NCBI RefSeq assembly: GCF_000620785.1
Contig: NZ_JIAI01000007.1
Span: forward strand, 62,001-126,000
Direction: 5' to 3'
DNA from: Actinospineispora acaciae DSM 45401
GTDB taxonomy: Bacteria; Actinomycetota; Actinomycetes; Mycobacteriales; Pseudonocardiaceae
Length of the DNA: 64,000 nt
Position numbers and translations under genes: made by a program
Notes under the pieces: model-generated
Told to the model about the DNA's origin: nothing
The model's database searches: none
What the model saw: the letters and a program-made list of their open reading frames with translations, nothing else
Shown: positions 44,704 to 59,776 of the stretch, one piece after another
How the letters are laid out: the number at the start of each line of letters is the position of its first letter
Numbering within the stretch: the first letter of the stretch is position 1

Positions 44704-44718
44704 GTAGGTGTAACCTAC
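44704..44718. promoter_or_regulatory. GntR-type operator palindrome
   Basis: GTAGGTGTAACCTAC has perfect 6-bp arms GTAGGT/ACCTAC around 3 nt, typical of FadR/FCD-type GntR sites. It lies 21 bp upstream of the GntR start and in the 258-bp gap shared with the divergent MHS transporter, suited to autoregulation. The rest of the gap holds no gene. Confidence 0.55.
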
Positions 44719-44739
44719 AGGCGGCAGAGGGGAGCCCCG

Positions 44740-45420
44740 ATGAAGATCACCCGCGTCTACGCCCCGGTCCGCGAGCAGGTCGTCGAGGTGATCCGGGCGG
44801 AGATCGTCAACGGGGATCTCCGGCCCGGCCAACGGCTGGTGGAGCGGGAGGTGTGCGAGCGGCTCGACATCTCCCGCAACACCCTGCGGGAGGCCCTTCG
44901 CCAGCTGGAGGCCGAGGGATTCGTGACCATCGCGCCCAACAGGGGCCCGGCCGTGGCCGTGCTGACCGCCGACGAGGCCCGCCAGGTCTACCAGGTTCGC
45001 GAGGCGCTCGAATGCATGGCGGTGCGGCTGTTCGTCGAGCGTTCGGACAGCTCGGATCGTGACAAGCTGCGCGACGTGGTGGCCCGGCTGCGCGACGCCC
45101 ACACCACCGGTTCGGTCACCACCATGCTCGACGCCAAGACCGGCTTCTACGACGTGCTCTACGCCGGGTGCGGCAACGACGTGCTCCGAGGCCAGGCCGC
45201 GCTGCTGCAGTCCAGGCTCTACCAGCTGCGGGCCCGGTCGCTGTCCAGGCCCGGCCGGCCGATCGACAGCATCGCCGAGATCGAGCAGGTGCTGGAGCTC
45301 ATCGCCTCGGGGGACGCCGCCGGCGCCGCCGAGCTGTGGAGCCGGCACATCCGAGGGGCGGCCGCCGCCGCACTGGCCGACAACACCGACAACATGACGG
45401 AGAGCGGAGGACGACAGTGA
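44740..45420 (+). CDS. GntR-family (FCD domain) transcriptional regulator
   Basis: 226 residues from ATG 44740, with GAGGGGAG upstream. Winged HTH at the N-terminus: GDLRPGQRLVEREVCERLDISRNTLREALRQLEAEGFV. C-terminal FCD helical domain, with metal-binding residues expected in VYQVREALECMAVRLF and the HI of LWSRHIRG. Its stop overlaps the GTG of the racemase-like gene, so regulator and enzyme are made together. Likely senses a carboxylic acid and controls both the operon and the divergent transporter. Confidence 0.9.
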   Translation: MKITRVYAPVREQVVEVIRAEIVNGDLRPGQRLVEREVCERLDISRNTLREALRQLEAEGFVTIAPNRGPAVAVLTADEARQVYQVREALECMAVRLFVERSDSSDRDKLRDVVARLRDAHTTGSVTTMLDAKTGFYDVLYAGCGNDVLRGQAALLQSRLYQLRARSLSRPGRPIDSIAEIEQVLELIASGDAAGAAELWSRHIRGAAAAALADNTDNMTESGGRQ

Positions 45421-46280
45421 CCGGCCCGACGCCCGACACCACCAGGATCTGGGTCCAGAGCGTCACCGACCTGAGCGTGCTGCCCTTGTACGCGCAACAG
45501 CTCGAGGAGCACGCCGCGCGCTGCGTGCGGCCCTCGACAGTGGTCGACGTGCACGGAGTCGCCCCCGGCACCTACCCCGAGGGCGTCCCGCCGGTCGAGC
45601 TGCTGCGCTATCCCGCCGCCGAGTACCTGCTCGGCGTGCAACTGCTGCGCAACGCCGGACGCGCCGAACAGGAGGGCTACCACGCCTTCGCGGTCAGCTG
45701 CTTCTTCGACCCGGTCCTGGCCGAGCTGCGCGGCGCCGTGGACATCCCCGTCGTCAGCCTCTGCGAGAGCACGCTCATGATGAGCGCGGCCGCCGGGTGC
45801 CACCTCGGCCTGATCGGCATCGCGGAGTCGAACAAGGACCGGCTCGTCGACCTGGTCGGCCGGTACGGGTTCGCGGCGAGGGTGGCGGCGATCGTGGAGG
45901 TCGACCCGCCCATCGGCGAGGACGAGATGCATCGGGCGTACGGCGACCCCGCCCTGCTGCTCCCGAGGTTCGAGGCCGCGGCCGGACGCTGCGCGGACGC
46001 CGCCGCGGACCTGTTGATCCCGGCCGAGGGCGTGCTGAACAGCCTGCTCACCCGGGGTGGCATCGGTGAGCTTGCCGGGATCCCGGTGGTCGACGCCTTC
46101 GCCGCGCTGCTCGCCCATGCCGAGGCGCTGGCCTGGCTGTCCCGCAACTCCGGGCTGACCGTCAGCCACCGGCACGGCTACGCCCGGGCGCCCGCCGAGA
46201 TGATGGACGCCGTCTCGGCGCGTGCGCGCGAGGCGCTGGCGGAATCGGCGACGGCCGTTCGAGGTTTGCGCACCACCTGA
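45417..46280 (+). CDS. Asp/Glu/hydantoin racemase-family protein
   Basis: 287 residues from GTG 45417, overlapping the GntR stop. The two-cysteine racemase arrangement is only partly visible: FAVSCFFDPVLAELRGAVDIPVVSLCEST resembles hydantoin racemase/maleate isomerase proteins with the first Cys in AVSCFFDP, while the second-half catalytic position falls in LIPAEGVLNSLL, where a Cys is missing. It could be a racemase variant or a decarboxylase/isomerase of the same fold. Context (GntR, MHS carrier) indicates catabolism of a small acid or hydantoin. Confidence 0.75.
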   Translation: MTGPTPDTTRIWVQSVTDLSVLPLYAQQLEEHAARCVRPSTVVDVHGVAPGTYPEGVPPVELLRYPAAEYLLGVQLLRNAGRAEQEGYHAFAVSCFFDPVLAELRGAVDIPVVSLCESTLMMSAAAGCHLGLIGIAESNKDRLVDLVGRYGFAARVAAIVEVDPPIGEDEMHRAYGDPALLLPRFEAAAGRCADAAADLLIPAEGVLNSLLTRGGIGELAGIPVVDAFAALLAHAEALAWLSRNSGLTVSHRHGYARAPAEMMDAVSARAREALAESATAVRGLRTT

Positions 46281-46331
46281 CGGGGTAGGTCCGGGCGTCA
46301 CAACGGGGTTTCCGTGAGGAGGCGGTTCGCC

Positions 46332-46745
46332 GTGGCCCGCGTGCCGAGAGGCCCAGACATTCTCGATACGGTTCCCACCCCGGACCCGGCTCACGAACAG
46401 GACGACCGACCGGATCTGGCGGCGCTGCACGACAATCTCTTCGACGGGGAGCGCTTCGACGGAATCTACCGGGGTTGCCCGGGAGGGATTCACCTTCTCG
46501 CGGTCACCAACCGGCGCCTCATGGTCCTGGACTCCAGCCGCCGCGAAGGCCGAACGGCCCTCACCTCGATACCGATCTCCCAGATATCCACCGTGAGCTA
46601 CCTCGCCCCGGACCACCGCTCGATCCCCAGGTCCACCACCGTCGAGATCCAGGTGCGCTCCACCTACTTCGAGCTGTGCTGCCAGGACGAGGAACAGGCA
46701 CACGAGGTGCACGACCTGCTCATCTGGAACCTGGTCGGCGTCTGA
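46332..46745 (+). CDS. PH-like domain protein (bacterial YokE type)
   Basis: 137 residues; GTG 46332 is chosen because GGAGG lies about 10 bases upstream. The core (DGERFDGIYRGCPGGIHLLAVTNRRLMVLD ... SIPISQISTVSYL) matches the bacterial PH-like fold, with its alternating strands and VTNRRL motif. A C-terminal helix follows. No signal or membrane helix. Such proteins bind lipids or proteins in stress responses. Role here unknown. Confidence 0.7.
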   Translation: MARVPRGPDILDTVPTPDPAHEQDDRPDLAALHDNLFDGERFDGIYRGCPGGIHLLAVTNRRLMVLDSSRREGRTALTSIPISQISTVSYLAPDHRSIPRSTTVEIQVRSTYFELCCQDEEQAHEVHDLLIWNLVGV

Positions 46746-46785
46746 GCGCCGTTTGGACCGACTCCGAGCGGGAACCTGAACCCGC

Positions 46786-46992
46786 AAGAACCTGGTCCAG
46801 CGCGCGCCCTCCCCCACCGACGCCCGCGCGGTCCGCGTCGAGCTCACCGGATCCGGCGGCGCCCTGCTGGAGCACGTCCAGCAGTCCCACCGCGCCGGGA
46901 TCCGCACCGCGCTCGACCGCATCCCGCCCGGAGACCGGCTGCCCCTGGTGCGAGCGCTGCGCGGCCTGGCGGCGGCCGCCGTTCCCCGGTAA
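46786..46992 (+). pseudogene. MarR-family regulator remnant (C-terminal part)
   Basis: The frame KNLVQRAPSPTDARAVRVELT ... DRLPLVRALRGLAAAAVPR is the wing and C-terminal dimerisation helix of a MarR regulator. The N-terminal half with the recognition helix is absent upstream, where the PH-like gene ends, and no start codon fits. A deletion remnant. The remaining bases to 47186 hold a short CATCAA/TTGATG hairpin near 47112 and no gene. Confidence 0.65.
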
Positions 46993-47186
46993 ACCGTTTC
47001 GACCCCGTCCCCGCCCGTACCGAGGCCGTGGGACACTGTGCGGCGTACGCGTCCGGGTTCTGACCCGGATCGCCCTCGGCCGCGGTGCGTGAGTCCGCCC
47101 GCACCCCGCCCATCAAATCCCCTTGATGAACCGCGACCGTCACCGCGCGGGCTCCCAGCCATGCACAAAGAGAATGGAGTAACCCC

Positions 47187-47693
47187 ATGAGTGCCGACCG
47201 AATGACCAATGGCGCCGAACGAGAGCTCATCGAGAACACGCTCGATCGCAACCGCGAAGCGCTGATCGAGACCGCGCGCGGCCTCTCCGAAGCCGACGCC
47301 CGCCGGCGACTCGTCCCGTCGCTGACGACACCGATCTCGCTGATCAAGCATGCCGCCGCCGCCGAACGGATCTGGTTCCAACGGTTCTGGGCGGGGCTCG
47401 ACGAGTCCGAATGCGACGGATACTCGAACCGTGACGAGGGCACCTTCGCCGTCGCGGACGACGAGCCCCTGGCCGACGTGATCGCCGAGTTCGAACGCGC
47501 CAGCCGGCGGTCACGGGTCATCGCCGCCCGCTTCGACCTCGACGACACCAAGGACAACCCCCGCGAAGGGACCGTCAGCATGCGGTGGACCCTGCTCGCC
47601 ATGATCGAGGAGTTCGCCCGGCACGCGGGGCACGGCGACATACTTCGCGAACAGATCGACCGGTCCACGGCCCGGCAGCGCGAGCGGCGGTGA
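47187..47693 (+). CDS. DinB/DUF664-family protein
   Basis: 168 residues from ATG 47187, preceded by AGAGAATGGAGTAA. A four-helix DinB-like fold is indicated by the metal-binding His of SLIKHAAAAERIWFQRF and the C-terminal EEFARHAGHGDILREQID. The DUF664 group is common in actinobacteria and includes putative mycothiol- or metal-dependent enzymes. Its stop overlaps a possible GTG start of the rhomboid gene, so the two may be translated together. Confidence 0.85.
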   Translation: MSADRMTNGAERELIENTLDRNREALIETARGLSEADARRRLVPSLTTPISLIKHAAAAERIWFQRFWAGLDESECDGYSNRDEGTFAVADDEPLADVIAEFERASRRSRVIAARFDLDDTKDNPREGTVSMRWTLLAMIEEFARHAGHGDILREQIDRSTARQRERR

Positions 47694-47719
47694 GCGGTCG
47701 CCTCGGCGCGCGTGTTCTC

Positions 47720-48478
47720 ATGGTCTGCCCAGCCGCACCAGCAACAGGGAGGGTCGGTATCTCGTACGCCGGCGTGGTCGACGACTGTTCGAAGTGGGCG
47801 GGCGGGGTCGCGCGCCGATACCCCGTGACGCTGGCCGTCGCGGTCCTCACCTCGGCCGTGAGCGTTCCGGCCCTGGTGTCCCCGGGGCTGGTGCGCGCGC
47901 TGGAGCAGGACCCGCACGCGTTCGCCCAGGGGCAGTGGTGGCGGCTGCTCACGCCCATGCTCATCCAGGGATACGGCCTCGGCCACCTCGCGTTCAACCT
48001 GCTCGGGATCGTGCTGGCCGGCATCGCCGTCGAACGCCGCTACGGATGGCGGCGCTGGCTGGTCGCCTACCTCGCCGGCGGTGTGGTGGCGATCGCGGTG
48101 ACCTCGGTGTTGTTCCCGGACCAGACCGACTCCGGCTCGTCCGCCGGGGTCGCCGGCCTGATCGGCGCGATGATGGTCGCGGTGGCGTCCTCCACGCGCC
48201 TCCCGCCGTGGCCGAGCCTGCTGTACGGACTGTTCTTCGCGGCCTACCTGAGCGCGCTCGCGCTCGGCGGGCCCATCGCCGGGGCGGTGGCCGGGACGGC
48301 CATGATCCCGGCGTTCCGGCTCACCCGAAAGCTCGCCGGCGAGCACGCCCTGCGCGTCGGCATCCTCGTCGTCGTCGGCGCCGCGACCGTCGCGATGCTC
48401 GCCGTCGGGGACAGCCACGGGATCGGCCTGGCCACCGGAATGATCGTGGCGACGCTGCCGCCGCCGAGGAACCAATGA
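47720..48478 (+). CDS. Rhomboid-family intramembrane protease-like protein
   Basis: 252 residues from ATG 47720; GTG 47690, overlapping the DinB stop, is an alternative. Six hydrophobic helices. Rhomboid marks: QWWRLLTPMLIQGYGLGHLAFNLLGI (helix 2 His/Asn region), a serine in the DSGSSAGVAGLIGAM helix at the GxSG position, and a His in GDSHGIGLATG near the last helix. An active Ser-His dyad is therefore possible, though the motif is slightly variant. Would cleave membrane proteins within the bilayer. Target unknown. Confidence 0.78.
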   Translation: MVCPAAPATGRVGISYAGVVDDCSKWAGGVARRYPVTLAVAVLTSAVSVPALVSPGLVRALEQDPHAFAQGQWWRLLTPMLIQGYGLGHLAFNLLGIVLAGIAVERRYGWRRWLVAYLAGGVVAIAVTSVLFPDQTDSGSSAGVAGLIGAMMVAVASSTRLPPWPSLLYGLFFAAYLSALALGGPIAGAVAGTAMIPAFRLTRKLAGEHALRVGILVVVGAATVAMLAVGDSHGIGLATGMIVATLPPPRNQ

Positions 48479-48547
48479 GCGTTCGGACGTGCTACACATG
48501 GCCGCGTACAGGCCCGCCGAGTGTTGCTCAGGGAGGGTGATCCCACC

Positions 48548-49348
48548 GTGGCCGACAGCTCACCGGATCCCAGGATCAACTTCGGCGTTCCCGGCGCCGC
48601 CAGGATCTGGAACTACTGGATGGGCGGCAAGGACTACTACGCCGTCGACAAACAGGCCGGAGACGCCGGCCTCGAGCTCTACGACATGCGCGCGATGGCG
48701 CGCGAGTGCCGGCAGGCCTCCATCCGCATAGTGCGTTTCCTGGCCGGCGAGGCCGGCATCCGGCAATTCCTGGACATCGGCGCCGGCCTGCCCGCCATGC
48801 AGAACACGCACGAGATCGCTCAGTCGATCGCCCCGGAATGCCGCGTGGTGTACGTGGACAACGACCCGGTGGTACTGGCGCACGCCCGCGCGCTGTTGAC
48901 CAACACCACCCCGGAAGGGGTCACGGCCTACATCGAGGCGGACTGCCACGACCCCGACCTGATCGTCTCCGATGCACGCAACGTGCTCAACTTCAACGAG
49001 CCGATCGCCGTGATGTTCATGGGCGTGCTCGGCCACGCGCGCAGCTTCGAGGCGGCACGGTCGATCGTCGCGCGGGTGATGGACGCGGTCGCACCCGGCA
49101 GCTACCTGGCCACCAACGAGGCCAACGACACCAACGAGGACTTCACCACGCTCTGCGCGAACTACGAACAGACCGGCGCCGTGCCCTACGTCCCGTACCC
49201 GGTCGAGGAGATACGCCGACGGTTCGACGGCCTGGAGATGGTCGAACCCGGCCTGGTGCCCGTGACAGACTGGCGACCCGAAGTCCCCGAAATCGGCAGC
49301 CCCACCCCGATGCGCGAGGTTCACGTCGGAGTCGCGCGCAAGCCCTGA
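48548..49348 (+). CDS. SAM-dependent methyltransferase (PF04672 type), copy 1
   Basis: 266 residues from GTG 48548, with AGGGAGG upstream. Actinobacterial PF04672 hallmarks: FGVPGAARIWNYWMGGKDYY at the N-terminus, IRQFLDIGAGLPAMQNTHEIAQ as the SAM-binding site, VVYVDNDPVVLAHARALL, and a conserved VARKP end. A very similar paralogue in opposite orientation lies at 58967-59776, so the two bracket the helicase island. The family's substrate is unknown. The stop is only 53 bp from that of the convergent helicase gene. Confidence 0.88.
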   Translation: MADSSPDPRINFGVPGAARIWNYWMGGKDYYAVDKQAGDAGLELYDMRAMARECRQASIRIVRFLAGEAGIRQFLDIGAGLPAMQNTHEIAQSIAPECRVVYVDNDPVVLAHARALLTNTTPEGVTAYIEADCHDPDLIVSDARNVLNFNEPIAVMFMGVLGHARSFEAARSIVARVMDAVAPGSYLATNEANDTNEDFTTLCANYEQTGAVPYVPYPVEEIRRRFDGLEMVEPGLVPVTDWRPEVPEIGSPTPMREVHVGVARKP

Positions 49349-49401
49349 GCCCCTGTGGCCAGCATGGGTTTGAGCACGGCCGGCCGATCTGAGCACGGCG
49401 C

Positions 49402-52400
49402 TCACTCACGGATCAGCCCACCCCCGTGAGCAAGCTGGCGCAGTGCCAAAAGCGCGCCGGCGCGGCTTAGATCAGCGTGGAACCGTTGATTCGAAAAGTT
49501 GCGAAGGCAGCCGTAGCACGATGTTTCTTCACCGCAGTCACAGTTCTCGATCCGGCCGAAAGCTGAGGCCACCACGATGTCGAATGCCTCACCGATTCGG
49601 AGCACTCCTCCCGCGCCGCCGGGCACCGTGTCGAACAGGACGATTCCAGTTCCGTTCTCGGGTCGTCTGTAAAGAGTGCCGCCAATATCGTCACGGCCGA
49701 GCTCAAGCCCGATCGCGGCGCCCTCCAGTAGGCCGTAGAGCAACGACAACCATGCGTCCTTGGCCATGGTCGGCGGCACGGCCAACGGGTCGAACGACAG
49801 ATCCAGCAGGTCGGTTTCGTAGGGGTGCGCGAGAGACCGCTGGCGCATAGGCCCGGCGCACTCGGTGTTGCGTAGCAAGTGGGGATGGCTCTTGGCGGGC
49901 TTGCTCAACACGCTGTGTCCCGCGCCGCACCAGTCACAGATCAAGTAGCCGCCGCCGTTCGGCCCCTCCGACACGGCGATCAGCTCGCCCCTGGCCTTTG
50001 AACGGGCGCGCACGGACCCGCCGTCGTGGGTACGCCACACCGTCGAGCCGACATCCTGGTCGCCGAGCGTGCGGACATAGGTCGCGCCGTTCCAGCTTCG
50101 TCTCGGCGGCGCGGTGCCGGGCTTGCTGGGTTCCGGTTCGGCGACAAAGCCGAATTCGGGAACATAATACTGCTTGTCCCGGTGCGCCACGACGGAGCAG
50201 GATGGGCACACCGGATCGATGTCCTCGTCACCCTCCCAGTAGTGCTGGCACCCCTCGCATACCACGTAACGTTTGCTGATCAGCTCACGTCCGGGCAATC
50301 GATAGACCCCGCCCGATCGCCACAGCCAACCGCCGGCGACCACCTCAGAGCCCGGCGCGTACTCATAGATGGCGGCGGACAGATCGCGGCTGAGTTCGAG
50401 CTTGCTGCCCACCGGATGGGCTGAGTAGCTGGTTCGAAGCTCGACAGTGTCGACAGGGAACCCGTACTTCGGAAGCACGTTGCGGTTGGCGAGGTAGCCG
50501 ATGAGCTCCCGCGAGGTCAGTGTGGCGATGGTCTTCTCGAAACGCTGGACGTCGTACCCGCGCCGCTGCTCGAAAGCATGCTGTCGCCGTTCCTCGAGGT
50601 TGTCGACGTCGTGTGCAAGTTGGAGACGCACTACGTCGATCAGATCGCACAACGTCGTCACCCAGGCCCCGCTGTCAACGCCGATCGCCGTTTGGACGTC
50701 GGCGGGCAACACAGCGCGCAATGACCTGTCCACCCCCGAGGGGACCGGAGTTAGGAAAGCTCGAAGGCGCGAAGACGGTGGGCTGTCACCGAGGAAGAAC
50801 TGCCCCGCGGTGCTCCATCGTTCACCCGCCAAGTCCATTGCGTGGCGGAAGAATGCGGCGAGCGCGATCGAGTGCGCATGTCGTCGGTCAATCCGTTGGT
50901 TGCCGAGCGGCACATAGGGCGCACGCACCTCGCCAGCGATCATCGCCTCGGGATGAGCGTAGCAGGACAGGTCGTGCGAGCGGCGTTGCGCGTAAGTGAG
51001 CACGAGGGCGGCTGATTCGGTACGGCGGCCAGCGCGTCCCGCCCGTTGCAGGTAGTTCGCGGTATTCGGTGGCATGTTGCGCAGCATGACTGACTGCAGC
51101 TCACCGACGTCGACTCCAAGCTCGAAAGTCGTCGAGCAGGACAGCACGTTCACCTGTCCTCTGACGAATCCCTGCTGTACCTCCGCGGCCTCGCGGCTCT
51201 GCAACTGCGCGGTGTGTTCCTTCGCCACCATCGGTACCGGATTCAGCGTTCTGTAGAGCCCTCGGTAGTGATTGTCGTCCTCGTCCGCACCACGCGGCAA
51301 GAAGGTGTGCAATGTGCCGTCACAGCCGAGCGTCGGGCAAATTCCCCGCACCGATACGGCAGCCACCCGTAGGCAGCGATCGCACTGGTAGATCGGTTTG
51401 TCCACCAGTGAAAGCTCCAGCCATGTGTGGTCTATTTGCCGCACGGCCCCCAACTGCCGAACGTTATCGCTCGCAAGCCATCCTTCGGCCGGCTGGGTGA
51501 TAAACCTCCAGCAACCACGCAGTACCTGTGTGGGGTCGAGACCGCATTCGGTGGAAGCCAGCACTCGGCGCACGTAGTCAAGGCGACGGTTGCCTCCTCG
51601 TGTGGGCAACCAGCTGAGCACCTTTCGGGTTGGCTCCGATCCCTCTTCCCGCAGGTAGATCGGCCCTCGGCGGGGATCGAACGCTTCGTCGCGCGGGTCG
51701 ACGCCATCAGGCATGTCGACGACGCCCTGCTGACGGACGGTGCGGATCAACTCGGACAACAGGTTCCACGCTTCCTCGTCGGACAATCCGAGGCCGGTGA
51801 AGCCGGGTGGGATCTTCCACCGCTCGTCGCGGCCGAGGCCGACCTTGAGCAGGGCGAGACCTTCCAACGATTGGCGGTCATCGACCGCTACCAGCTCCTG
51901 CATGATCCACAATGCAGCCGCGCGTTCGCGTTGCTGGCGCGAGTCGCGGCGGCGAAACACATTCGAGTGGCCGGCCGCCTGAGCGACGTGGAACGTCAAA
52001 TCGCTCACGCTGATCGTTTCACCTGCGCGGGCACCTGCCGCGAGACCTCCGAGGATGAGCTTCCGGTGCTGGATGGACTCGTAGCTGGACGCCAGATACG
52101 GGGCGAAGAATGCGGCGGCCTGTCGGCTGTCGCTGAAGGACAGCAGCTTGCGCCCCTCTCCCGGCTGGTCGGCGAACGCTTCCTCGGCGGCTGGCGGCTG
52201 CTCCTGGTAGAGGGCCGTGGCCAGCACCGATGTCGCAGCGTCGGTGCCGCTGTCGAACAGGCGCACCATGGCGGCGCCGCGTGCGCCGCAGGCCAAGCAT
52301 CCCCTCGGCGCGGAGCCGCGCACCTGCGACAGCAGTCGGACGGGCCACAAGGTCGTCGAAGCACATCCCGGTTGGCCGCAGGAACCACCGCCGGCTCCGG

Positions 52401-54039
52401 TGCTCAGGCCACCACAGCCCGCGCACAACAACGCATCACGTTCCTTCAGCGACGACGCCTCCTCGAGCTCTTCGTCGTCCTGATCGACCAATACAGGCGA
52501 GTCACCCAACAAAGCCCACGATCGCAGCTCGTCCGCTTTGACTCGAGGGGCAAAGCGGCCGTCGCTAGTGATCGTGCCGGTCAGGTAGACGGCTCCGCAT
52601 CGTTTGCACGCGCCGAACTCGAACATGGCCCGAGCGCAGGTCTCGCAGACGTCATGCCGGCTCAGCGACACGTGTGGGTCGTCGGGCGACAGGCATGTGA
52701 AGGCGCCCTCGGTAGCGCGCGCAAACAGGTGGTACCGAGCAGACAGCACAGGGGCACCCGAAACGTCGGTAATCCGGCTGCCGAGTGCAACCACCGCCGC
52801 AAGCGCCTGGCGCGGGTCACCATCGGATGCGCACAGCTCACTTGCGAGGCCGTCGAGTGGCTCCGGACCGTCAGCCAGGCGCCGGCGAAGCGTCACCATG
52901 AGTTGCTCGTGTGCCAGCGCTTGCGCCGCATCGCTGGCGTCGAATCCGTGTTCCTTGGCCAACCGCACGATCGCGTCCGCGGGTTCCGCGCATGTGGCGA
53001 GCTGCCGGTAGGTGGCGGTCGCCAACGGCCCCCAGGGCTCACAGACCACAGTGGACTGCCGCGTCGCAGATACGAGATCTTGCCGATCGGAATCGTTGTT
53101 GGACCATTCGAACGGGACGTCGAACAGATTGGACGCAAACTTCACCACGGTGTACGGGTCGTCCCCGATGGTCGCGCTCGTGGCGATGCACTGTAAGGCT
53201 CTCTCAGGCGCGACACGATCGCGAAGCCTGCGAAGAAGCATCGCCATCTCCGCCGCCTTCGCCCCGTTGTAGACGTGTGCCTCGTCCACCGCGAGAAACC
53301 GCCAGGTCCCACCGTGGAACAGTTCTATGTCGGCCGGCCTCAGCAGCAGGTACTCGAGCATGGCGTAGTTGGTCAACAGCAGGTGCGGCGGGGCGGACCG
53401 CATCTCGTCGCGGCTGAGCAGCTCGTTCGGTAGGCGAGGATCATCGGGGTTGAGCGCTGTGAAAGTGTCTTCCGCGCGCTGCGCACTGTATTCGGTGTCC
53501 CCCGTGTACCGGCCGAAGGTAATCTGCGGCGTTCGGGCGAGCATCTGGCGGAGACGCTTGAGCTGATCGTTCGCCAGCGCGTTCATGGGGTATAGCAGCA
53601 AGGCCCGCACCCCCGGACCAAGCGTACCGTCGGCGTGCTCAGCCATGAGGGAGTTCAGGATGGGCAGAAGGAAGCTCTCGGTCTTGCCAGACCCGGTACC
53701 CGTGGCCACCACCAGGTTACGACCGCGCGATGCCTTCCGGATCGCCTGCTCCTGGTGGAGATACAGCGGACGGTCCAGCGGCAACGCGGCGGTCGCCAAC
53801 TCGCCGAATGCCCGGTGAAGGACACCCTCGTCGATGAGCCGGCGGAGGGTTGCGCCAGGCGTATAGGGCGGCGTCGCCTCCAACAGCGGCCCCTTGGTGA
53901 GCATCGGACTATCGGCGATCTGTTGGTTGAGTGCGGCCAACATGTGCGAGTCGCGGATGGGCAACAGTGACCGCAGATAGCGCCGGTACGTGGCCGTAAT
54001 CAGCTCACTCGCCGCCAGCGCATCGAGAGTCTCGTGCAC
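49402..54039 (-). CDS. Giant DEAH helicase with zinc clusters and DUF1998 (DruE-like)
   Basis: 1545 residues from GTG 54039, sharing one base with the stop of the upstream gene. Helicase domain 1: motif I ATGTGSGKTES (112-122), LLYPMNALANDQ (148-159), LTNYAMLEY, DEAH (252-255), SATI (288-291). Domain 2 includes SFSDSRQAAA (634-643) and motif VI QRAGRAGRR (998-1006). Four-cysteine clusters lie at 465-481, 539-559 and 886-906, with further CxxC pairs. The C-terminal ~170 residues are DUF1998, with LFDTVPGGAGGV and a final zinc site CDCGEETSCYGC. Size, cysteine clusters and pairing with a ~1100-residue partner match DruE of Druantia type III; MrfA-type DNA-repair helicases are much smaller. Likely a DNA translocase in anti-phage defence. 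Confidence 0.8.
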   Translation of the reverse strand: MHETLDALAASELITATYRRYLRSLLPIRDSHMLAALNQQIADSPMLTKGPLLEATPPYTPGATLRRLIDEGVLHRAFGELATAALPLDRPLYLHQEQAIRKASRGRNLVVATGTGSGKTESFLLPILNSLMAEHADGTLGPGVRALLLYPMNALANDQLKRLRQMLARTPQITFGRYTGDTEYSAQRAEDTFTALNPDDPRLPNELLSRDEMRSAPPHLLLTNYAMLEYLLLRPADIELFHGGTWRFLAVDEAHVYNGAKAAEMAMLLRRLRDRVAPERALQCIATSATIGDDPYTVVKFASNLFDVPFEWSNNDSDRQDLVSATRQSTVVCEPWGPLATATYRQLATCAEPADAIVRLAKEHGFDASDAAQALAHEQLMVTLRRRLADGPEPLDGLASELCASDGDPRQALAAVVALGSRITDVSGAPVLSARYHLFARATEGAFTCLSPDDPHVSLSRHDVCETCARAMFEFGACKRCGAVYLTGTITSDGRFAPRVKADELRSWALLGDSPVLVDQDDEELEEASSLKERDALLCAGCGGLSTGAGGGSCGQPGCASTTLWPVRLLSQVRGSAPRGCLACGARGAAMVRLFDSGTDAATSVLATALYQEQPPAAEEAFADQPGEGRKLLSFSDSRQAAAFFAPYLASSYESIQHRKLILGGLAAGARAGETISVSDLTFHVAQAAGHSNVFRRRDSRQQRERAAALWIMQELVAVDDRQSLEGLALLKVGLGRDERWKIPPGFTGLGLSDEEAWNLLSELIRTVRQQGVVDMPDGVDPRDEAFDPRRGPIYLREEGSEPTRKVLSWLPTRGGNRRLDYVRRVLASTECGLDPTQVLRGCWRFITQPAEGWLASDNVRQLGAVRQIDHTWLELSLVDKPIYQCDRCLRVAAVSVRGICPTLGCDGTLHTFLPRGADEDDNHYRGLYRTLNPVPMVAKEHTAQLQSREAAEVQQGFVRGQVNVLSCSTTFELGVDVGELQSVMLRNMPPNTANYLQRAGRAGRRTESAALVLTYAQRRSHDLSCYAHPEAMIAGEVRAPYVPLGNQRIDRRHAHSIALAAFFRHAMDLAGERWSTAGQFFLGDSPPSSRLRAFLTPVPSGVDRSLRAVLPADVQTAIGVDSGAWVTTLCDLIDVVRLQLAHDVDNLEERRQHAFEQRRGYDVQRFEKTIATLTSRELIGYLANRNVLPKYGFPVDTVELRTSYSAHPVGSKLELSRDLSAAIYEYAPGSEVVAGGWLWRSGGVYRLPGRELISKRYVVCEGCQHYWEGDEDIDPVCPSCSVVAHRDKQYYVPEFGFVAEPEPSKPGTAPPRRSWNGATYVRTLGDQDVGSTVWRTHDGGSVRARSKARGELIAVSEGPNGGGYLICDWCGAGHSVLSKPAKSHPHLLRNTECAGPMRQRSLAHPYETDLLDLSFDPLAVPPTMAKDAWLSLLYGLLEGAAIGLELGRDDIGGTLYRRPENGTGIVLFDTVPGGAGGVLRIGEAFDIVVASAFGRIENCDCGEETSCYGCLRNFSNQRFHADLSRAGALLALRQLAHGGGLIRE

Positions 54040-57000
54040 TAGATCTCCTCGGTCTCAAGGCCGACCAACAACTCGGCCAGAACCAGATCGATGGTCACCA
54101 GCTCGGGGGCGCTTACCGCCAGTCGACGCCACTTCGCTCGATACAACTGCTCCATGCGCTGGCAGCGGACATCGCCGCGCGCGGCAAGGCGTGCGACGAG
54201 AGCCAGCGCTGCCGAAGCGGCAGGGAGGTCCAACCACTCGCCGGCACCGCGGGCGCCTTGTCGAGCAGTGATCTGAGCGCGAAGTCGCGGGCGACCATCC
54301 AGCAGAGCCAGGGCGTTGCGGGCGATGCCGGACGCCATACCTCCGACCTGCCAGACTCCGCGGTCCGCGCGGTGATCAAAGAGCCGACGGGCCGCGACCG
54401 CTCTGCTGTCCGGATCCAGCAGTGCCCTCGGAACGACCTGAGCTGCTCGCCACAGGCTCTCCAACTGCTGAGGCTGCATGGCAACCATGGCGATTGCCTC
54501 GCGTCCGAACCGACACACCGTCGCGGCCGGGTCTACGCCGGTCGACAGCAGAGCATCGACCGTTTCCCCGCACTGCGCGAGGGCGGCACCCCGGACATCC
54601 TCGTCGTCTAGATGAGCGGAGAGCGCACCGAGTAGCGGGACAACCGGCCAAAGCCGATTGGCGATCTCAGCACTCACCGTTGCGCCGACACCCGCGAGGC
54701 CCGAGCTGACCACCGCGGTCACGACCTCGCCGGGGGGCAGGCCCACATCAGCGAGTGCCACGAGTGCGGCACCTGGCCTGGACCGGAGGACCTCGGCGCA
54801 CCGATCGGCGATACGGCTAGCCTCAGTCGACCGATACAGGCGCGGCGCAAGCGTGAGAAGCTGCCAGATCTTGCCCAGATCAGCACACTCGACCGGGATG
54901 TCCGCCTCCCCGGCCGCAAACTTCGACAGCGCGGTCTCGTCCGGGTCGCGGCTGGTCAGATACCCGATCCCGGGGGTATAAAGCGCGTCCGAAGGCCAAC
55001 GCGGCCACGCGCTGGGAGCCCACGGATCGTCGACCCGAAGCGCCACGGTCAACGGGCCGGCATCCCGTAGCTCAGGCGGCACCGCAACGCTTCCGTCGGC
55101 TCCGACCAGCTGTGTGAGAGGCGCCCGCCACGGCGCGCGGAGAAGGTACAGGCCGGCCGTGAGGCCATCAACGCGGACTACGTCGCGCAGCCTGAGGACG
55201 TCGCCCACCTGTTCAACACCGGTGGCGAGCCTGCGGGGCCGAACCATTGCCAGCAGTGACCTGTTCGGAGCGTCGAGCACCAGATCAACCTGCTGATGCG
55301 CGGCCACGGTACCCGTCATGCGGACCAGCTCGAAGCGAGCGGTTCCCTCCCGTGTCCGACCACTCGAAGGGACCTCCTGGACCACCTCGCCGCTGGCAAG
55401 AACGCGCAACCGGGGCACTGTCGTCATGCCGGGAACACGCACCAGCAGGACGCCCGGCTCCTCGTCAAAGGTGTCGGCGGTGATCCGTACCGGGCTCGCC
55501 GACCAAGCCACCGGCTCATCCGCGCGCTCGTGCATGACCTGGACGTGCGGAGGCGTGACAACCAACGGCTCGGTTTCCGAACCGGCCCGGTACTCAACAA
55601 CGCTTGTCCGCTGGGTCGAATCGAATGTCAGCACCCGAGGATGTGCCTGGGCGCCAATGGCCGGCACGAGCTCCGCCTGGGCCGAGGCGAGCCCGTCCAT
55701 TCCGAATACCCGCACATCAGGAGTGAAAAGTACGTCCAATGACTCCGCGATAAAGATGGTCCGGGTGATACTACGTCCGAGCGAACCGCGGATGGTAATG
55801 TCGAACGAACCCAACAACGGTCGCGGCAAGCGGTCCCACAGCTCGGTGACCGTCTGGGGTTCGTCCAATGCAAAAGTCTCGAAGGCTCTCGCGTTGCCAT
55901 CATTGCGCCGAATCTCCACCGCCCATGCCGTCCGTGCGTTCCGCTCTGCCGGCAGCCAGATGTCCGGTGCTTCGGTGCAGACCGGGGTGCCGTACGGCGT
56001 CGTTACTCCGCGTAGCGGTGGCGTCGTACCAATACGAGCCTGGGTGTATCCCTGGATCGGTCGACAAGTACCGGACAAGCCGTCGAGCCCGAGCGAGCGG
56101 ACCCGACGCAGGTTGACCTGGCGCAGACGCCAGCCGTTCCACCCAAGAGGGAGCTGGCCTTCCACAACAATGTCGATTCGGCCGTCGCCGACGAGTTCGT
56201 TCGTCTCGGGGTGGACGACCCACACCACGTCCGGTGCCAGCGGAGCGGTAGCCGGGATGCGCCGTCCACCCTCGTCGAATACCAACATTGGATTGTCCGC
56301 GTCGATCACCGGAAGCTTGGTCTGATCAGTGCTGTCAAGCGTCGAGACCACGACTGTTCGCACAGGCCGAAGCAGTGCAAACGAGGTCGGCGGAGCGGAC
56401 TCGGCCACTCCGGCCCACCGCGCCTGGCTCTCCACGACATGGGGTTGTCCATCAGCGGTCACCGACCAGCTGACGAAGCCTCCCGGGGCGTCGTTAACGG
56501 ACGGAAGCACAACCTGGACGCCCCGGCCGAACGGGTCGAGGCCGATTCGAGGACGCTCCACGCGGCTTGCGCCGCCCCAGCGGACGTGTCCAAGTCGTGC
56601 CCCGAAGACCCCTCGCGCGGAGATCTCCTGGGCTCGCGCCACCACCCTGGGCGGCAGCCCCACGACGTCCAGGTACCCGGACCGCTCGCGCAGTCGGTCG
56701 AGCAGGTCGAAGCTTCGCTCGACGAAGTCGTAGGCGTACTCGCTGCCATACGTGAGGAAGCGACTGGCGGGCTTGTCCAGCGCGTTCAGCCGGTTCGCCC
56801 GGCCTCTAGCCCATTGAAAGAAGGACTCGGCATCCAAGTCCGGATCGAGGCGCCGCCGGTGATCGAGTAGTCGGAAGTAGTCCTCAAGGCAATAGTCGGG
56901 AATTCCCGCGTGCATCAGGATCGGGCCGAGGTTCTGTAGCGGGGACTCGTCGAACGTTGGCAATCCCAAAGCCGTCAGCGCCGCGCGAAACCCTCGACCC

Positions 57001-57344
57001 CACGCCGTCTGGTCGAATTGATTGCCGTCGTATCCGAGTTCATCCCACAGTTGCGGCCAGAGCCCACCCCGGCGATAGTCCCGGGAGGCGATCCCGGTCG
57101 TTGCCACCAGGACGCACGCCGGCCACCGGTTGAAGAGCTGCTCTGCTCGTCCTGTGCCCGTCCACTTCGCGTAGGTCCGCCCCAGTACCTGACAGACCTG
57201 CTTGCGATGTGCCTCCTTGATCTCGAGCTCGGCCACGAGTGAAAGGCCTCGAAGCCGCCGCGACCAGCGTTCTTCTCGCATCCGGAGCAGCTCGGCCGCC
57301 GACACCCTCAGAGCATGGCTCGGACTTGCATGATCTGTACTCAC
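54039..57344 (-). CDS. Large uncharacterised partner of the DUF1998 helicase (DruH-like)
   Basis: 1101 residues from GTG 57344; ATG 57446 would add 34 residues and is not excluded. No named domain is recognisable. The first ~250 residues are helical and basic (LLRMREERWSRRLRGL, FRLLDHRRRLDPDLDAESFF). The middle ~600 look beta-rich with repeated DVVWVVHPET/VRVPGMTTVPRLRV-type strands. The last ~230 resemble helical repeats (ALSAHLDDEDVRGAALAQCGETVDALL). The stop TAG shares its G with the helicase GTG, so the two proteins are made in tight coupling. Druantia type III systems consist of just such a large protein (DruH) followed by DruE, which is the basis for the name; sequence homology to DruH itself was not tested. 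Confidence 0.72.
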   Translation of the reverse strand: MSTDHASPSHALRVSAAELLRMREERWSRRLRGLSLVAELEIKEAHRKQVCQVLGRTYAKWTGTGRAEQLFNRWPACVLVATTGIASRDYRRGGLWPQLWDELGYDGNQFDQTAWGRGFRAALTALGLPTFDESPLQNLGPILMHAGIPDYCLEDYFRLLDHRRRLDPDLDAESFFQWARGRANRLNALDKPASRFLTYGSEYAYDFVERSFDLLDRLRERSGYLDVVGLPPRVVARAQEISARGVFGARLGHVRWGGASRVERPRIGLDPFGRGVQVVLPSVNDAPGGFVSWSVTADGQPHVVESQARWAGVAESAPPTSFALLRPVRTVVVSTLDSTDQTKLPVIDADNPMLVFDEGGRRIPATAPLAPDVVWVVHPETNELVGDGRIDIVVEGQLPLGWNGWRLRQVNLRRVRSLGLDGLSGTCRPIQGYTQARIGTTPPLRGVTTPYGTPVCTEAPDIWLPAERNARTAWAVEIRRNDGNARAFETFALDEPQTVTELWDRLPRPLLGSFDITIRGSLGRSITRTIFIAESLDVLFTPDVRVFGMDGLASAQAELVPAIGAQAHPRVLTFDSTQRTSVVEYRAGSETEPLVVTPPHVQVMHERADEPVAWSASPVRITADTFDEEPGVLLVRVPGMTTVPRLRVLASGEVVQEVPSSGRTREGTARFELVRMTGTVAAHQQVDLVLDAPNRSLLAMVRPRRLATGVEQVGDVLRLRDVVRVDGLTAGLYLLRAPWRAPLTQLVGADGSVAVPPELRDAGPLTVALRVDDPWAPSAWPRWPSDALYTPGIGYLTSRDPDETALSKFAAGEADIPVECADLGKIWQLLTLAPRLYRSTEASRIADRCAEVLRSRPGAALVALADVGLPPGEVVTAVVSSGLAGVGATVSAEIANRLWPVVPLLGALSAHLDDEDVRGAALAQCGETVDALLSTGVDPAATVCRFGREAIAMVAMQPQQLESLWRAAQVVPRALLDPDSRAVAARRLFDHRADRGVWQVGGMASGIARNALALLDGRPRLRAQITARQGARGAGEWLDLPAASAALALVARLAARGDVRCQRMEQLYRAKWRRLAVSAPELVTIDLVLAELLVGLETEEI

Positions 57345-57482
57345 GTCGTGGCCCTGTTCTACGAGTCGAACGTGCGCGCACATCACCCGCAGAGCTCGGC
57401 GACATCCCACCGGCTCCCCAGCAGGTCGTCGCTTCGACTGCATCATCTGTTACGTGGGTCACATGAGATCTTCCTACACCCG

Positions 57483-57641
57483 GCGGTGGGGGGCGCACCA
57501 CGGAACGAGGCGATCGCGGTACCGCTGGCGGTCTACGGCGTCGTCATGTACCTGCCCGAGGCGCTGTTGTGCTACCTGCTCAGCCGTCACGCGCGGACGG
57601 GCTCGGCGGAACGCGAGGCGACCCAGCCGGGGCTAGCGTAA
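57483..57641 (+). pseudogene. C-terminal fragment of a membrane protein at the island edge
   Basis: The open frame ending at TAA 57641 reads as one membrane helix (EAIAVPLAVYGVVMYLPEAL then LCYLLSRHA) with a charged tail, typical of the end of a polytopic protein. No start or upstream helices exist, because the low-GC helicase operon begins immediately to the left, on the other strand. It looks like host sequence cut by insertion of the operon. Family not identified. Confidence 0.5.
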
Positions 57642-57646
57642 GGCGC

Positions 57647-58267
57647 ATGGGACTCTCCGCGGCGGAAGCCTTCGATGCGCTCGGCAAGGACTACGAAACG
57701 GCGTTCGCGGGGCTGACCGCGCAGCGCGACGAGCTCGACTGGTTGGTCACCGAGCTGTCCGAGGGTGCGCGGGTGCTCGACGTCGGCTGCGGCACCGGCC
57801 GCCCGACCGCCGAGACACTGGCCGCGGCCGGCCTCGACGTGACCGGCGTGGACGTCTCGCCCCGCATGGTCGACATCGCCCGCACGCAGGTGCCCGGCGC
57901 CCGCTTCGAGGTCGCCGACCTGCGTACGTTGACGTTTCCGGCGGGGAGCTGGGACGCGGTGGTGGCGTTCTTCCCGCTGCTGCAGCTGACCCGCGCGGAG
58001 ATCGACGCGGCGCTGGCGAAGTTCGCCGGCTGGCTGGCGCCGGGCGGGATCTTCCTGCTGGCCACCGTGCCAGCCGACATCGAGAACGTCGAGGTCGAGT
58101 TCATGGGCAAGCCGGTGACGGTGAGCAGCTACCCGAGGGAGGTGTACCGCGAGCGGCTCGCCGGCCTGGGCCTGCGCGTCGTGCGGGAACAGGTCATCGA
58201 GTTCCGGCCCGACCACCCCGGCGCCGCGCCCGAGCACGACCTCTTCATGGCCGCGCGCAAGCCCTAG
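57647..58267 (+). CDS. Class I SAM-dependent methyltransferase
   Basis: 206 residues from ATG 57647. Methyltransf-25 type: VLDVGCGTGRPTAETLAAAGLDVTGVDVS (motif I with the acidic residue after strand 2), FEVADLRTLTFPAGSWDAVVAFF (motif II) and WLAPGGIFLLATVP (motif III). The substrate is a small molecule or unknown. It ends 56 bp before the Ada-like gene and may share its transcript. High GC returns here, in contrast to the helicase operon. Confidence 0.88.
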   Translation: MGLSAAEAFDALGKDYETAFAGLTAQRDELDWLVTELSEGARVLDVGCGTGRPTAETLAAAGLDVTGVDVSPRMVDIARTQVPGARFEVADLRTLTFPAGSWDAVVAFFPLLQLTRAEIDAALAKFAGWLAPGGIFLLATVPADIENVEVEFMGKPVTVSSYPREVYRERLAGLGLRVVREQVIEFRPDHPGAAPEHDLFMAARKP

Positions 58268-58323: not shown

Positions 58324-58959
58324 ATGGCGCCGCAACAGAACCGCGTCACTCCGCTGGGAGATATCGAGGCTTTCGCGTTGCGGGGCGCGTGGACGGGCAA
58401 CCGCGGTGTGTTGCATTCCGGGCACGAGATCGTGCGCTTCCATGCCGGCAATTTATGGATCACCTGCGCGCTGGCGTTTCGCGGCCGGTGGCGGGAGCTG
58501 TGGCTGCCGAACAGGTGGACCCCTCTGTTCTTTCACGACGAGGCGGTGTCCATGGCCGCGGGGCACCGCCCGTGCGGCGAATGCCGCCACGCGAGCTACC
58601 AGGACTACAAGCGCGCCTGGGCGCGGACACACGGAGGACAACCACCCTCGGCCGGGGAGATGAACCGCCAACTCCACGGTGAGCGCATTTTCCGGGGCAC
58701 GCACCGGCGGCGGCTGCACCGACTCTTGTGGCGTGACCTTCCGGACGGCACGTTCGTGTTCGACGACGGTGAGCTCGCGTTGGTGCTCGGCGAATGCCTG
58801 GTGGTCTGGACCCGCGAAGGGTACAGCGCGACGAGGGCGTTGCCGCGCACCGGCACGGCAGCCGTGATCACTCCTCCGTCGTCGGTCGATGTGCTCCGCG
58901 CGGGCTATTCGGTGCAGATCGACGAATCCGCCCGCGAATTGGCCGGGCTGTCCGGGTGA
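58324..58959 (+). CDS. Conserved hypothetical protein with Ada-like CxxC motif
   Basis: 211 residues from ATG 58324, with CGGGAGGATGAC before it. The central GHRPCGECRHASYQDYKRAW resembles the RPCxxCxPD edge of the Ada metal-binding domain, but only one CxxC pair is present, so zinc binding as in Ada is doubtful. The rest is Arg/Trp-rich (RRRLHRLLWRDLPDGTFVF). I recognise it as a conserved actinobacterial hypothetical type. A nucleic-acid-related role is guesswork. Confidence 0.65.
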   Translation: MAPQQNRVTPLGDIEAFALRGAWTGNRGVLHSGHEIVRFHAGNLWITCALAFRGRWRELWLPNRWTPLFFHDEAVSMAAGHRPCGECRHASYQDYKRAWARTHGGQPPSAGEMNRQLHGERIFRGTHRRRLHRLLWRDLPDGTFVFDDGELALVLGECLVVWTREGYSATRALPRTGTAAVITPPSSVDVLRAGYSVQIDESARELAGLSG

Positions 58960-58966
58960 TCCGGTT

Positions 58967-59776
58967 TCAGGGCTTGCGCCCCACGCCGCACAGGCTGACC
59001 ACATCCAGTTTCTCGGCACCACCTTCCGGGCGCCACTCGTCGAGTTTCACGACTCCGGGCTCGACAAGTTCCAGACCCTCGAACATCTGCTCCATCTGCT
59101 CCCGAGTACGCGCATAGTAATGCGATCCCTCGCTGGCTATGGCGTTGAACGCGGCGAGCGCCTTCTGGTAGTCCGCATCGGTGTCCTCGCCCTCGTAGTG
59201 CGCCAGGTAGCTGCCCGACGGGACCGCGCCCATGTACCGCCTCACGATCGCAAGGACCTCGTCATAGTCCTCGAGCTGCCCGAGCGAGCCCATGAACATG
59301 ACCCCGATCGGCTGGGTGAAGTTCAGGGTGGCGTGGGCGGCGGAGATGACCCGTTCGGTATTGCGGAGGTCGGAGTCGACGAATGCGGTGACGCCCTCGT
59401 CGGTGGTGTTGGTCAGCAAGGCCTGGGCGTGCGCCAGCACCACGGGGTCGTTGTCCACATAGACGATCCTTGCATCCGGGGCGACCGCCTGCGCGACCTC
59501 GTGGGTGTTCTCCGTGGCGGGAAAGCCGGTGCCGATGTCCAGGAACTGGCGAATGCCGGCCTCGGCGGCCAGGTACCGCACCGACCGGATCACGAACTCC
59601 CGGGACTGAACGGCGAACGTGACGATTCCGGGGAACGCCGCGCTGAACGCGTCACCCGCCGTCTTGTCGGCCTCGTAGTAGTTCTTCCCGCCTCCCAGAT
59701 AGTTCCAGATCCGGGCCGAGTTCGGCCTGTTGAAGTCGATCTCCGCGGCCCGGCCACCCGACTCTGCATCGGCCAT
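58967..59776 (-). CDS. SAM-dependent methyltransferase (PF04672 type), copy 2
   Basis: 269 residues from ATG 59776, with CCGGAGGGA upstream. Same family as 48548-49348: NSARIWNYLGGGKNYY, QFLDIGTGFPATENTHEVAQ and YVDNDPVVLAHAQALLTNTT, the last nearly identical between copies. Divergent from a full-length XRE-DUF5753 regulator across a 294-bp gap, a combination often seen in actinomycetes. Substrate unknown. The two copies flank the helicase island as an inverted pair. Confidence 0.9.
   Translation of the reverse strand: MADAESGGRAAEIDFNRPNSARIWNYLGGGKNYYEADKTAGDAFSAAFPGIVTFAVQSREFVIRSVRYLAAEAGIRQFLDIGTGFPATENTHEVAQAVAPDARIVYVDNDPVVLAHAQALLTNTTDEGVTAFVDSDLRNTERVISAAHATLNFTQPIGVMFMGSLGQLEDYDEVLAIVRRYMGAVPSGSYLAHYEGEDTDADYQKALAAFNAIASEGSHYYARTREQMEQMFEGLELVEPGVVKLDEWRPEGGAEKLDVVSLCGVGRKP

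What the first reader, a model, noticed from the sequence alone, without database searches (positions are those of the whole stretch)
49402..57344. Druantia type III-like anti-phage system (DruH-DruE)
A ~1100-residue uncharacterised protein followed, with one-base overlap, by a 1545-residue helicase that has several four-cysteine clusters, a SFSDSRQ motif and a C-terminal DUF1998. This is the two-gene layout known for Druantia type III. The operon is less GC-rich than its neighbours and sits beside a truncated host gene. If confirmed it would be an actinobacterial, possibly divergent, member.
Basis: partly seen in the sequence, partly recalled or inferred. Interest (0 to 1): 0.8.

Follow-up and report, generated by a model that had tools for sequence, protein, structure and literature searches.

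The report
Actinobacterial Druantia III-like phage-defence gene pair
Two overlapping genes in a soil-type actinobacterium most likely form a phage-defence system of the Druantia type III-like kind, in which the partner gene has changed so much that the standard search models tried here do not recognise it.

Summary
Window 49402-54039 (-) encodes a 1545-aa YprA-family helicase whose best PADLOC models are DruE ones. Just upstream, sharing one base, lies a 1101/1135-aa protein with no PADLOC, Pfam or NCBIfam match.

In 77 of the 80 best helicase loci fetched (Actinomycetota, Chloroflexota) a relative of that protein lies directly upstream; two have it one gene further up, one lacks it. It is a very remote DruH: profile-profile score against canonical DruH 66.8, at most 24.9 for 100 shuffled decoys. 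The signal lies in N-terminus and core; the C-terminal helical region gives none.

The helicase clade stands apart from the canonical type III and I references, and the window helicase ends 33 residues after its last cysteine motif, leaving no room for a C-terminal nuclease. This fits the published 'Druantia Type III-like' branch (PMC12458937) and, by published residue numbers only, the Mycolicibacterium smegmatis DruH-DruE shown to block phages (PMC13316683). A new member of a recently described kind. No activity was tested, and no direct structure comparison with solved DruH was possible.

The parts
54039..57344 (-). DruH-like gene (1101 aa from GTG 57344; longest ORF to 57446, 1135 aa)
   Evidence: ORF; no PADLOC/Pfam/NCBIfam match at E 0.1; family directly upstream of DruE in 77 of 80 loci; remote DruH homology
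49402..54039 (-). DruE-like helicase gene (1545 aa, GTG start)
   Evidence: PADLOC DruE1 587 bits, DruE3 558 bits; Pfam DEAD, Helicase_C, MZB; tree
53158..53757 (-). DruE RecA1/DEAD region (residues 95-294) with Walker A (residues 114-121, 53677-53700) and DEAH (residues 252-255, 53275-53286)
   Evidence: Pfam PF00270; motif positions; K119, D252 and E253 invariant in the window and five aligned relatives
51022..51219 (-). DruE RecA2/Helicase_C (residues 941-1006)
   Evidence: Pfam PF00271
49504..49737 (-). DruE MrfA Zn-binding (DUF1998) domain, residues 1435-1512; only 33 residues follow the last cysteine motif, so no room for a C-terminal nuclease domain
   Evidence: Pfam PF09369; tail length
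56616..57299 (-). DruH-like N-terminal helical region (residues 16-243)
   Evidence: AlphaFold2 model, mean pLDDT 89.3; remote match to canonical DruH N-terminus
54975..56552 (-). DruH-like beta-rich, Ig-like core (residues 265-790)
   Evidence: AlphaFold2 model; weak Foldseek matches to multi-Ig/macroglobulin proteins; remote match to canonical DruH core
54045..54944 (-). DruH-like C-terminal helical region (residues 801-1100), with D1086 (54087-54089), which is inferred to correspond to M. smegmatis D1108, reported as needed for defence
   Evidence: AlphaFold2 model; residue mapping, D in 16 of 16 aligned rows and nearly invariant in 56; no profile match to canonical DruH C-terminus

Best explanation
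A two-gene anti-phage operon of the Druantia type III-like branch, in a Pseudonocardia relative. DruH (helical N-terminus, Ig-like core, helical C-terminus) is inferred to sense a phage product made during infection, probably a tail or baseplate protein. DruE is an ATP-driven YprA-family SF2 helicase that is inferred to load on 3' single-stranded DNA in phage replication or circularisation intermediates. On activation the pair blocks phage DNA circularisation and replication, and infected cells stop or die. DruE here has no room for a C-terminal nuclease domain, so any DNA cutting would have to come from DruH or a host nuclease. Shown here: gene layout, helicase family, conserved pairing, remote DruH homology, absence of the tail. 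Reported elsewhere for relatives: phage resistance, need for both genes, activation by a minor tail protein, block of circularisation (M. smegmatis), 3'-tailed DNA binding (E. coli). Inferred: that this copy is expressed and works the same way.
For: DruE models score far above all others. The partner gene lies directly upstream in 77 of 80 DruE loci and further up in 2. Remote homology to canonical DruH: whole alignment 66.8 against at most 24.9 for 100 column shuffles and 15.0 reversed and 23.2 for the unrelated DruE alignment; by region N against N 28.4 (30 shuffles at most 17.5), core against core 37.4 (at most 18.3). The model's helix/beta/helix order agrees with the cryo-EM description of E. 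coli DruH in PMC13192584. Published M. smegmatis residue numbers fall on identical residues of mycobacterial family members: DruE K119, A292, R823, A1016, C1516 in L062 and L076 at zero offset; DruH R410, R536, E651, D1108 together in L062, L076, L149 and L167. Patchy occurrence: 7 of 149 relatives, own genome included.
Against: No curated DruH model tried matches. The C-terminal third shows no detectable homology to canonical DruH (14.7 against shuffled 16.0). By E-value the best DruE model is type I, not III. Profile probabilities are moderate: 88%, and 72% local with an earlier, larger alignment. Two of six off-diagonal region pairs also passed their own 30 decoys, though at 18.6 and 19.7 only. 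The solved DruH, 9tud, did not appear among the 50 Foldseek rows shown; the library ends at 2026-04-08 and I could not establish whether it holds 9tud, so this is either no test or a failed one. MSMEG_1253/1254 themselves were not in hand; of 11 DruH positions the best row fits 6, seven rows outside the four mycobacterial ones also reach 5 at other offsets, and R864/R865 were never placed together in those four. No activity was tested.
Confidence: 0.83

Rival explanations
1. Housekeeping repair helicase of the MrfA/SftH (YprA-only) kind with an unrelated neighbour.
For: Shares the DEAD, Helicase_C and MZB domains named for MrfA; the solved YprA chain 6znp matches at 69 bits. PMC13316683 reports that the helicase SftH can replace DruE in function.
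Against: DruE models score 587 and 558 bits; the closest solved chain by sequence is a 2108-aa DEAD/DEAH helicase (9tu7, 272 bits), far above 6znp. A partner gene is linked in 79 of 80 loci, unlike a lone repair gene.
Confidence: 0.04
2. A DISARM, Dpd, ARMADA or BREX component.
For: 16 of 80 relatives have an SNF2 helicase within 2.5 kb that resembles two proteins matching DrmD/BrxHII/HmaA models, and 11 of these 16 also hold a relative of a protein matching type IIG/DrmMI/PglX models.
Against: No relative of either gene was found in the window's own neighbourhood (window 34001-64000 plus 20 kb before and 19 kb after the window; window 1-34000 not included). DISARM splits helicase and DUF1998 into two genes (PMC12458937); here they are fused. 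The window helicase falls in a clade apart from the two helicases that I labelled ARMADA from their neighbours.
Confidence: 0.04
3. A distinct Druantia type: the partner shares N-terminus and core with DruH but has a different C-terminal effector part, so that it is a new type rather than a divergent type III.
For: C-terminal region shows no homology signal while N-terminus and core do; the DruE clade is separate from the III and I references with support 99; no nuclease tail on the window DruE.
Against: Same gene order, similar DruH length and one-base overlap as E. coli type III; absence of signal in fast-evolving helices is weak evidence; published work already calls such systems type III or III-like.
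Confidence: 0.3
4. A decayed, inactive copy.
For: No expression data; the sigma-70-type pattern scan of 57200-57800 found no promoter, which means little in an actinobacterium.
Against: Both frames intact; helicase motifs present; the helicase is 71% identical to Actinomycetospora L084 over 1527 columns.
Confidence: 0.06

Closest known systems
Mycolicibacterium smegmatis DruH-DruE (MSMEG_1253/1254), PMC13316683
   Same: Two overlapping genes, DruH 1132 aa and DruE 1667 aa, DUF1998 helicase, a tested lysine K119 at the number of the window's Walker A lysine; several tested residues fall on the same letters in mycobacterial family members.
   Different: Relatives of that DruE length (L062 1666 aa, L076 1668 aa) have tails of 138-140 residues after the last cysteine motif; the window has 33. 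Window DruH is 24-35% identical to the seven mycobacterial members of the alignment. MSMEG sequences were not compared directly.
Druantia Type III-like branch of Bell et al., PMC12458937
   Same: A phylogenetically distinct YprA branch near Druantia III whose helicases most often lack a nuclease domain; the window fits.
   Different: The main text does not contain the word DruH; its tree and sequence tables were not seen, so identity of the branch is inferred.
E. coli Druantia type III (DruH 9tud; DruE of PMC13192584)
   Same: Gene order and one-base overlap; DruE 27-28% identical in two blocks; DruH remotely homologous in N-terminus and core.
   Different: E. coli DruE is 2104 aa here and is described with two C-terminal PLD domains; window DruE is 1545 aa without them. 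DruH not detectable by BLAST, nor by HMM in either direction.
Druantia type I (DruA-E)
   Same: DruE1 is the best PADLOC model.
   Different: None of the neighbours scanned with PADLOC (58324-58959, 57569-58267) is a Dru protein; two helicases with a DruA neighbour branch with type III, apart from the window clade.

Membership tests
Druantia (any type) | YprA-family DruE helicase with fused DUF1998/MZB module | tested here: met
   PADLOC DruE1 587 bits, DruE3 558; Pfam DEAD, Helicase_C, MZB
Druantia type III (canonical) | DruH recognised by DruH profile models | tested here: not met
   0 PADLOC, Pfam, NCBIfam matches for P0002 at E 0.1; three canonical DruH controls match 9-11 PADLOC DruH models each
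Druantia type III (canonical) | Partner homologous to DruH | tested here: met
   Profile-profile: N-terminus and core above their decoys, C-terminus no signal; remote and not confirmed by structure
Druantia type III (canonical) | Two-gene operon, DruH then DruE, overlapping or abutting | tested here: met
   One-base overlap; 77 of 80 relatives have the family gene ending within 400 bp of DruE
Druantia type III (canonical) | Two C-terminal PLD domains on DruE (PMC12458937) | tested here: not met
   33 residues after the last cysteine motif
Druantia type III-like branch | Helicase in a branch distinct from canonical type III | tested here: met
   77-row clade, support 99, apart from 5 type III, 2 type I, 3 cyanobacterial, 2 ARMADA-labelled and 1 unlabelled row (FastTree, long reference branches); identity with the published branch not testable here
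Druantia type III-like branch | Usually no nuclease domain on the helicase | tested here: met
   Window tail 33 residues; of 58 of 80 relatives in which the tail could be measured, 36 have 23-64 residues and 22 have 118-145
M. smegmatis-type DruH-DruE | Functional residues conserved | tested here: inconclusive
   DruE K119 and the inferred counterpart of DruH D1108 (window D1086) present; the counterparts of R410, R536, E651 and E1099 are other residues in the window
Druantia (any type) | Reduces phage infection | not testable with these tools
   No bench work
DISARM | Separate drmA and drmB genes with methyltransferase | tested here: not met
   Helicase and DUF1998 fused; best DrmA hit 49 bits; no relative of the methylase tested in the stretches scanned
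MrfA/SftH repair helicase | Stand-alone repair helicase | tested here: not met
   Linked partner in 79 of 80 loci; DruE scores dominate

The most novel reading that the evidence does not exclude
The actinobacterial/chloroflexal systems are a separate Druantia type in which the helicase often has no nuclease and the partner has kept DruH's sensing N-terminus and core but has a different C-terminal effector. DruH would be the killing part and DruE both its restraint and its DNA-guided trigger. The reported toxicity of mycobacterial DruH alone, neutralised by DruE, fits this.
Probability: 0.3. Interest if true: 0.6.

Novelty: new member of a known kind. Interest (0 to 1): 0.42.

Why it matters
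Surveys that require a PADLOC DruH hit would miss this lineage. PMC13192584, based on PADLOC calls, finds type III predominantly in Proteobacteria (passage). Here a profile of seven canonical DruH proteins found 0 of 296 Actinomycetota genomes but 2 of 2 positive-control records, while a profile of three family members found 17 of 298 genomes of the window's order, own genome included and four of them weak partial matches. The 56-row alignment and model give a ready profile for the lineage. A DruE without a nuclease tail also sharpens the open question of which protein, if either, cuts DNA in Druantia III.

Tried and rejected
Foldseek of the DruH model against PDB gave multi-Ig/macroglobulin matches (best Salmonella alpha-2-macroglobulin 4u48, E 2.7e-5, TM-score 0.11/0.09), that is a stack of Ig-like domains and not a specific relative; 9tud is not among the 50 rows shown of 457 matches. 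Viral library: similar weak Ig-like structural proteins, with one baseplate wedge protein at rank 47, E 0.2. To learn whether the fold library holds the 9tu-series I modelled part of DruE (residues 862-1290, 15 rows), but the model was too poor to search with (mean pLDDT 55.7), so the question stays open. On this account I lowered the main confidence from 0.85 to 0.83.

Reading the minus-strand ORFs further left (43132-49405) as more operon genes was rejected: plus-strand genes there carry Pfam domains, and the transporter domains begin at residue 305 of the ORF at 43132. P0003 (48560-49405) overlaps DruE's end by four bases, lies antisense to the PF04672 gene and looks like an antisense frame (my judgement).

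Empty-site comparison failed: in three Pseudonocardia stretches fetched only the PDC-S40 gene (two) or the methyltransferase (one) had a relative at E 1e-15, never both flanks.

Viral contigs: no relative of E. coli DruH or of the window family. Plasmid records: no match to the window DruH.

The apparent link between a long DruE tail and an adjacent SNF2 helicase (10 of 19 against 0 of 27 loci with at least 3 kb on both sides, Fisher p 2e-5) did not hold as independent evidence: only 4 independent pairs on the tree, median sign-test p 0.5. L047, with a short tail and an SNF2 gene, was among the loci left out for lack of flanking sequence. A first count that looked only downstream gave 6 of 20 against 0 of 29.

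Bias to note: the helicase alignment used for the 80-locus scan came from loci first found through the DruH-like protein, and the scan kept the best 80 of 486 relatives. The tree is a FastTree with long reference branches flagged by the program; the order among types is unsure. The labels I, III, cyanobacterial and ARMADA of its reference rows are mine, from neighbouring genes or organism.
Full report
What is there. The window lies on contig C7 of a 9.93 Mb genome. A genome of the same genus (G011, contig of 240129 bases) has a contig as long as that of Pseudonocardia sp. MH-G8 in L046, so the host is a Pseudonocardia relative. Two minus-strand ORFs, 54039-57446 and 49402-54039, share one base. 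The second is a 1545-aa SF2 helicase with DEAD, Helicase_C and MrfA Zn-binding (DUF1998) domains. PADLOC ranks DruE models first: DruE1 587 bits, DruE3 558, with SngC 95, BrxH 92, DpdJ 87 and DrmA 49 far behind. The first ORF has no match in PADLOC, Pfam or NCBIfam at E 0.1, and one hit at E 1.4 in solved structures, which I take as chance.

Is the pair real? I scanned the collection of 84,980 species genomes with the helicase alignment; 486 stretches encoded a relative and the best 80 loci were kept. An HMM grown from the window protein and two relatives recognised the gene that ends within 400 bp of the DruE start in 77 of 80. Three of these copies are cut by contig ends (L044, L056, L098), one is split over three frames (L041), and eight are only 496-714 aa. 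Two more, L033 and L037, carry a full-length copy further up, with an Hsp70-NYN gene between. One, L054, has none in the stretch held. The helicase alignment was seeded from loci found with the DruH-like protein, so the fraction is biased upward. The family occurs in 7 of 149 relatives and 17 of 298 genomes of the order, own genome included in both; one of the 7 and four of the 17 are partial matches. On the helicase tree the window copy is sister to Actinomycetospora, whereas two other copies from the same genus (L046, and G027 in L019) sit in other subclades. This suggests repeated horizontal acquisition.

Is the partner a DruH? E. coli DruH was taken from an annotated plasmid locus, where it also shares one base with DruE. 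It matches PDB 9tud, named DruH, and 11 PADLOC DruH models. BLAST and HMM searches in both directions find nothing between canonical DruH and the window family. Profile-profile alignment of 56 family members with 7 canonical DruH proteins gives score 66.8 and probability 88%, against a maximum of 24.9 for 100 column-shuffled decoys, 15.0 reversed and 23.2 for the unrelated DruE alignment. An earlier alignment of 82 members gave 72% local and 93% global. Split in three, N-terminus pairs with N-terminus (28.4, 30 decoys at most 17.5) and core with core (37.4, at most 18.3). C-terminus with C-terminus gives 14.7 (at most 16.0). The six off-diagonal pairs score 10.7 to 19.7; two of them pass their own decoys slightly, core against canonical N-terminus (19.7 against 15.5) and C-terminus against canonical core (18.6 against 14.7). 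The AlphaFold2 model (mean pLDDT 89.3, pTM 0.79) has a helical N-terminus (16-243), a beta-rich core (265-790) and a helical C-terminus (801-1100). The cryo-EM account of E. coli DruH describes helical ends around a core, with three Ig-like domains at 257-748 (PMC13192584, section read). Direct superposition was not possible: 9tud was not among the 50 Foldseek rows shown, and I could not establish whether the library holds it.

Link to experiment. PMC13316683 (abstract and sections 2.1-2.4, 2.7, 2.8 and Discussion read) reports phage resistance from M. smegmatis DruH (1132 aa) and DruE (1667 aa), activation by minor tail protein Gp25, a block of phage DNA circularisation, and toxicity of DruH alone relieved by DruE. 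I did not hold those sequences. Its published residue numbers were tried at a range of offsets on family members. For DruE, L062 and L076 fit 5 of 8 at zero offset (K119, A292, R823, A1016, C1516); two other rows reach 5 at offsets 12-13. For DruH, the best fit of all is a mycobacterial row, L167, with 6 of 11; L062, L076 and L149 fit 5; these four rows share R410, R536, E651 and D1108. Seven other rows also reach 5 of 11 at unrelated offsets. In L062, E842, R864 and E998 fit together only at a different local offset, 42. D1108 aligns with window D1086, an aspartate in 16 of 16 aligned rows and nearly invariant in 56; the window has other residues at R410, R536 and E651. I think the M. smegmatis pair belongs to this family, by inference.

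Where it sits. A 90-row helicase tree puts the 77 rows of this clade together (support 99), apart from five type III, two type I, three cyanobacterial, two ARMADA-labelled and one unlabelled helicase; the program warns of long branches. The window helicase ends 33 residues after its last cysteine motif. Of 58 relatives in which the tail could be measured, 36 have tails of 23-64 residues and 22 have 118-145. Of six other helicases of 1640-1666 aa scanned with Pfam, five of which have such long tails, none had an accepted domain there; that the tails are degenerate Vsr-like folds is my guess. PMC12458937 (abstract, parts 1-2 of 3 of Results, and passages read) describes a Druantia Type III-like branch that most often lacks a nuclease, which fits.

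How it most likely works. Shown here: gene pair, helicase motifs, conserved pairing, remote DruH homology, no nuclease tail. Inferred from relatives: DruH senses a late phage product, probably of the tail; DruE loads on 3' single-stranded DNA (reported for E. coli DruE); together they block circularisation and replication and the cell dies or stalls. With no nuclease tail on DruE, any cutting must come from DruH (dimer-dependent nuclease activity is reported for E. coli DruH) or from host enzymes. The two published accounts differ: the M. smegmatis work finds a DruH-DruE interaction, the E. coli work no stable one.

Novelty. Searches of the held library for Druantia with DruH/DruE, Actinobacteria, Mycobacterium, Actinomycetota, and DruH with DISARM (one search listed 30 of 50,967) showed one experimental actinobacterial system and one genomic description of the branch; no listed title or abstract opening names Pseudonocardia. 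'Genomic characterization of the antiviral arsenal of Actinobacteria' has no occurrence of Druantia in its main text (term search only). The window is a new member of a recently described kind. What is added here is the evidence that its DruH is a remote homologue missed by the curated models tried, and the domain-wise limits of that homology.

Noticed in passing
16 of 80 loci, e.g. L062:13080-16439, L046:13207-20645, L064:12965-16513; L058, L061, L067, L081 upstream and divergent: An SNF2 helicase lies within 2.5 kb of DruH-DruE; the two scanned match DrmD, BrxH and HmaA models. In 11 of the 16 a relative of a type IIG/DrmMI-like methylase (scanned in L046) lies beyond it: a DISARM/ARMADA/Hma-like pair beside Druantia III-like genes.
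   Followed up: partly
L033:5925-7970, L037:5927-7975, L035:15074-17056: An Hsp70-like protein with a C-terminal Zc3h12a-type NYN ribonuclease domain (Pfam scan of L033) sits between DruH and DruE in two Streptosporangiaceae; a relative lies downstream in a third locus.
   Followed up: partly
L102:4578-7991: The C-terminal 230 residues of a Chloroflexota DruH-like protein match the C-terminal part of the defence protein model MzaA (E 1.7e-58), a possible lead to what the DruH C-terminus does.
   Followed up: no
L034, L036, L039, L051, L060, L066, L079, L090: Shortened DruH-like genes (496-714 aa) that lack the C-terminal third; L034, L039, L079 and L090 also lack most of profile positions 150-340.
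   Followed up: no
window 58324-58959 (+): PADLOC candidate PDC-S40 (257.6 bits) close to the operon; relatives in two other Pseudonocardia stretches of 20 kb occur without DruH-DruE.
   Followed up: partly
window 48521-49348 (+) and 58967-59776 (-): Two PF04672 S-adenosyl methyltransferase genes flank the region in opposite orientation.
   Followed up: no
L019:13415-16984 (-): A second YprA-like helicase ORF (1189 aa, 27% identical over 722 columns) lies about 3.7 kb beyond the DruH-like gene in another Pseudonocardia (G027).
   Followed up: no
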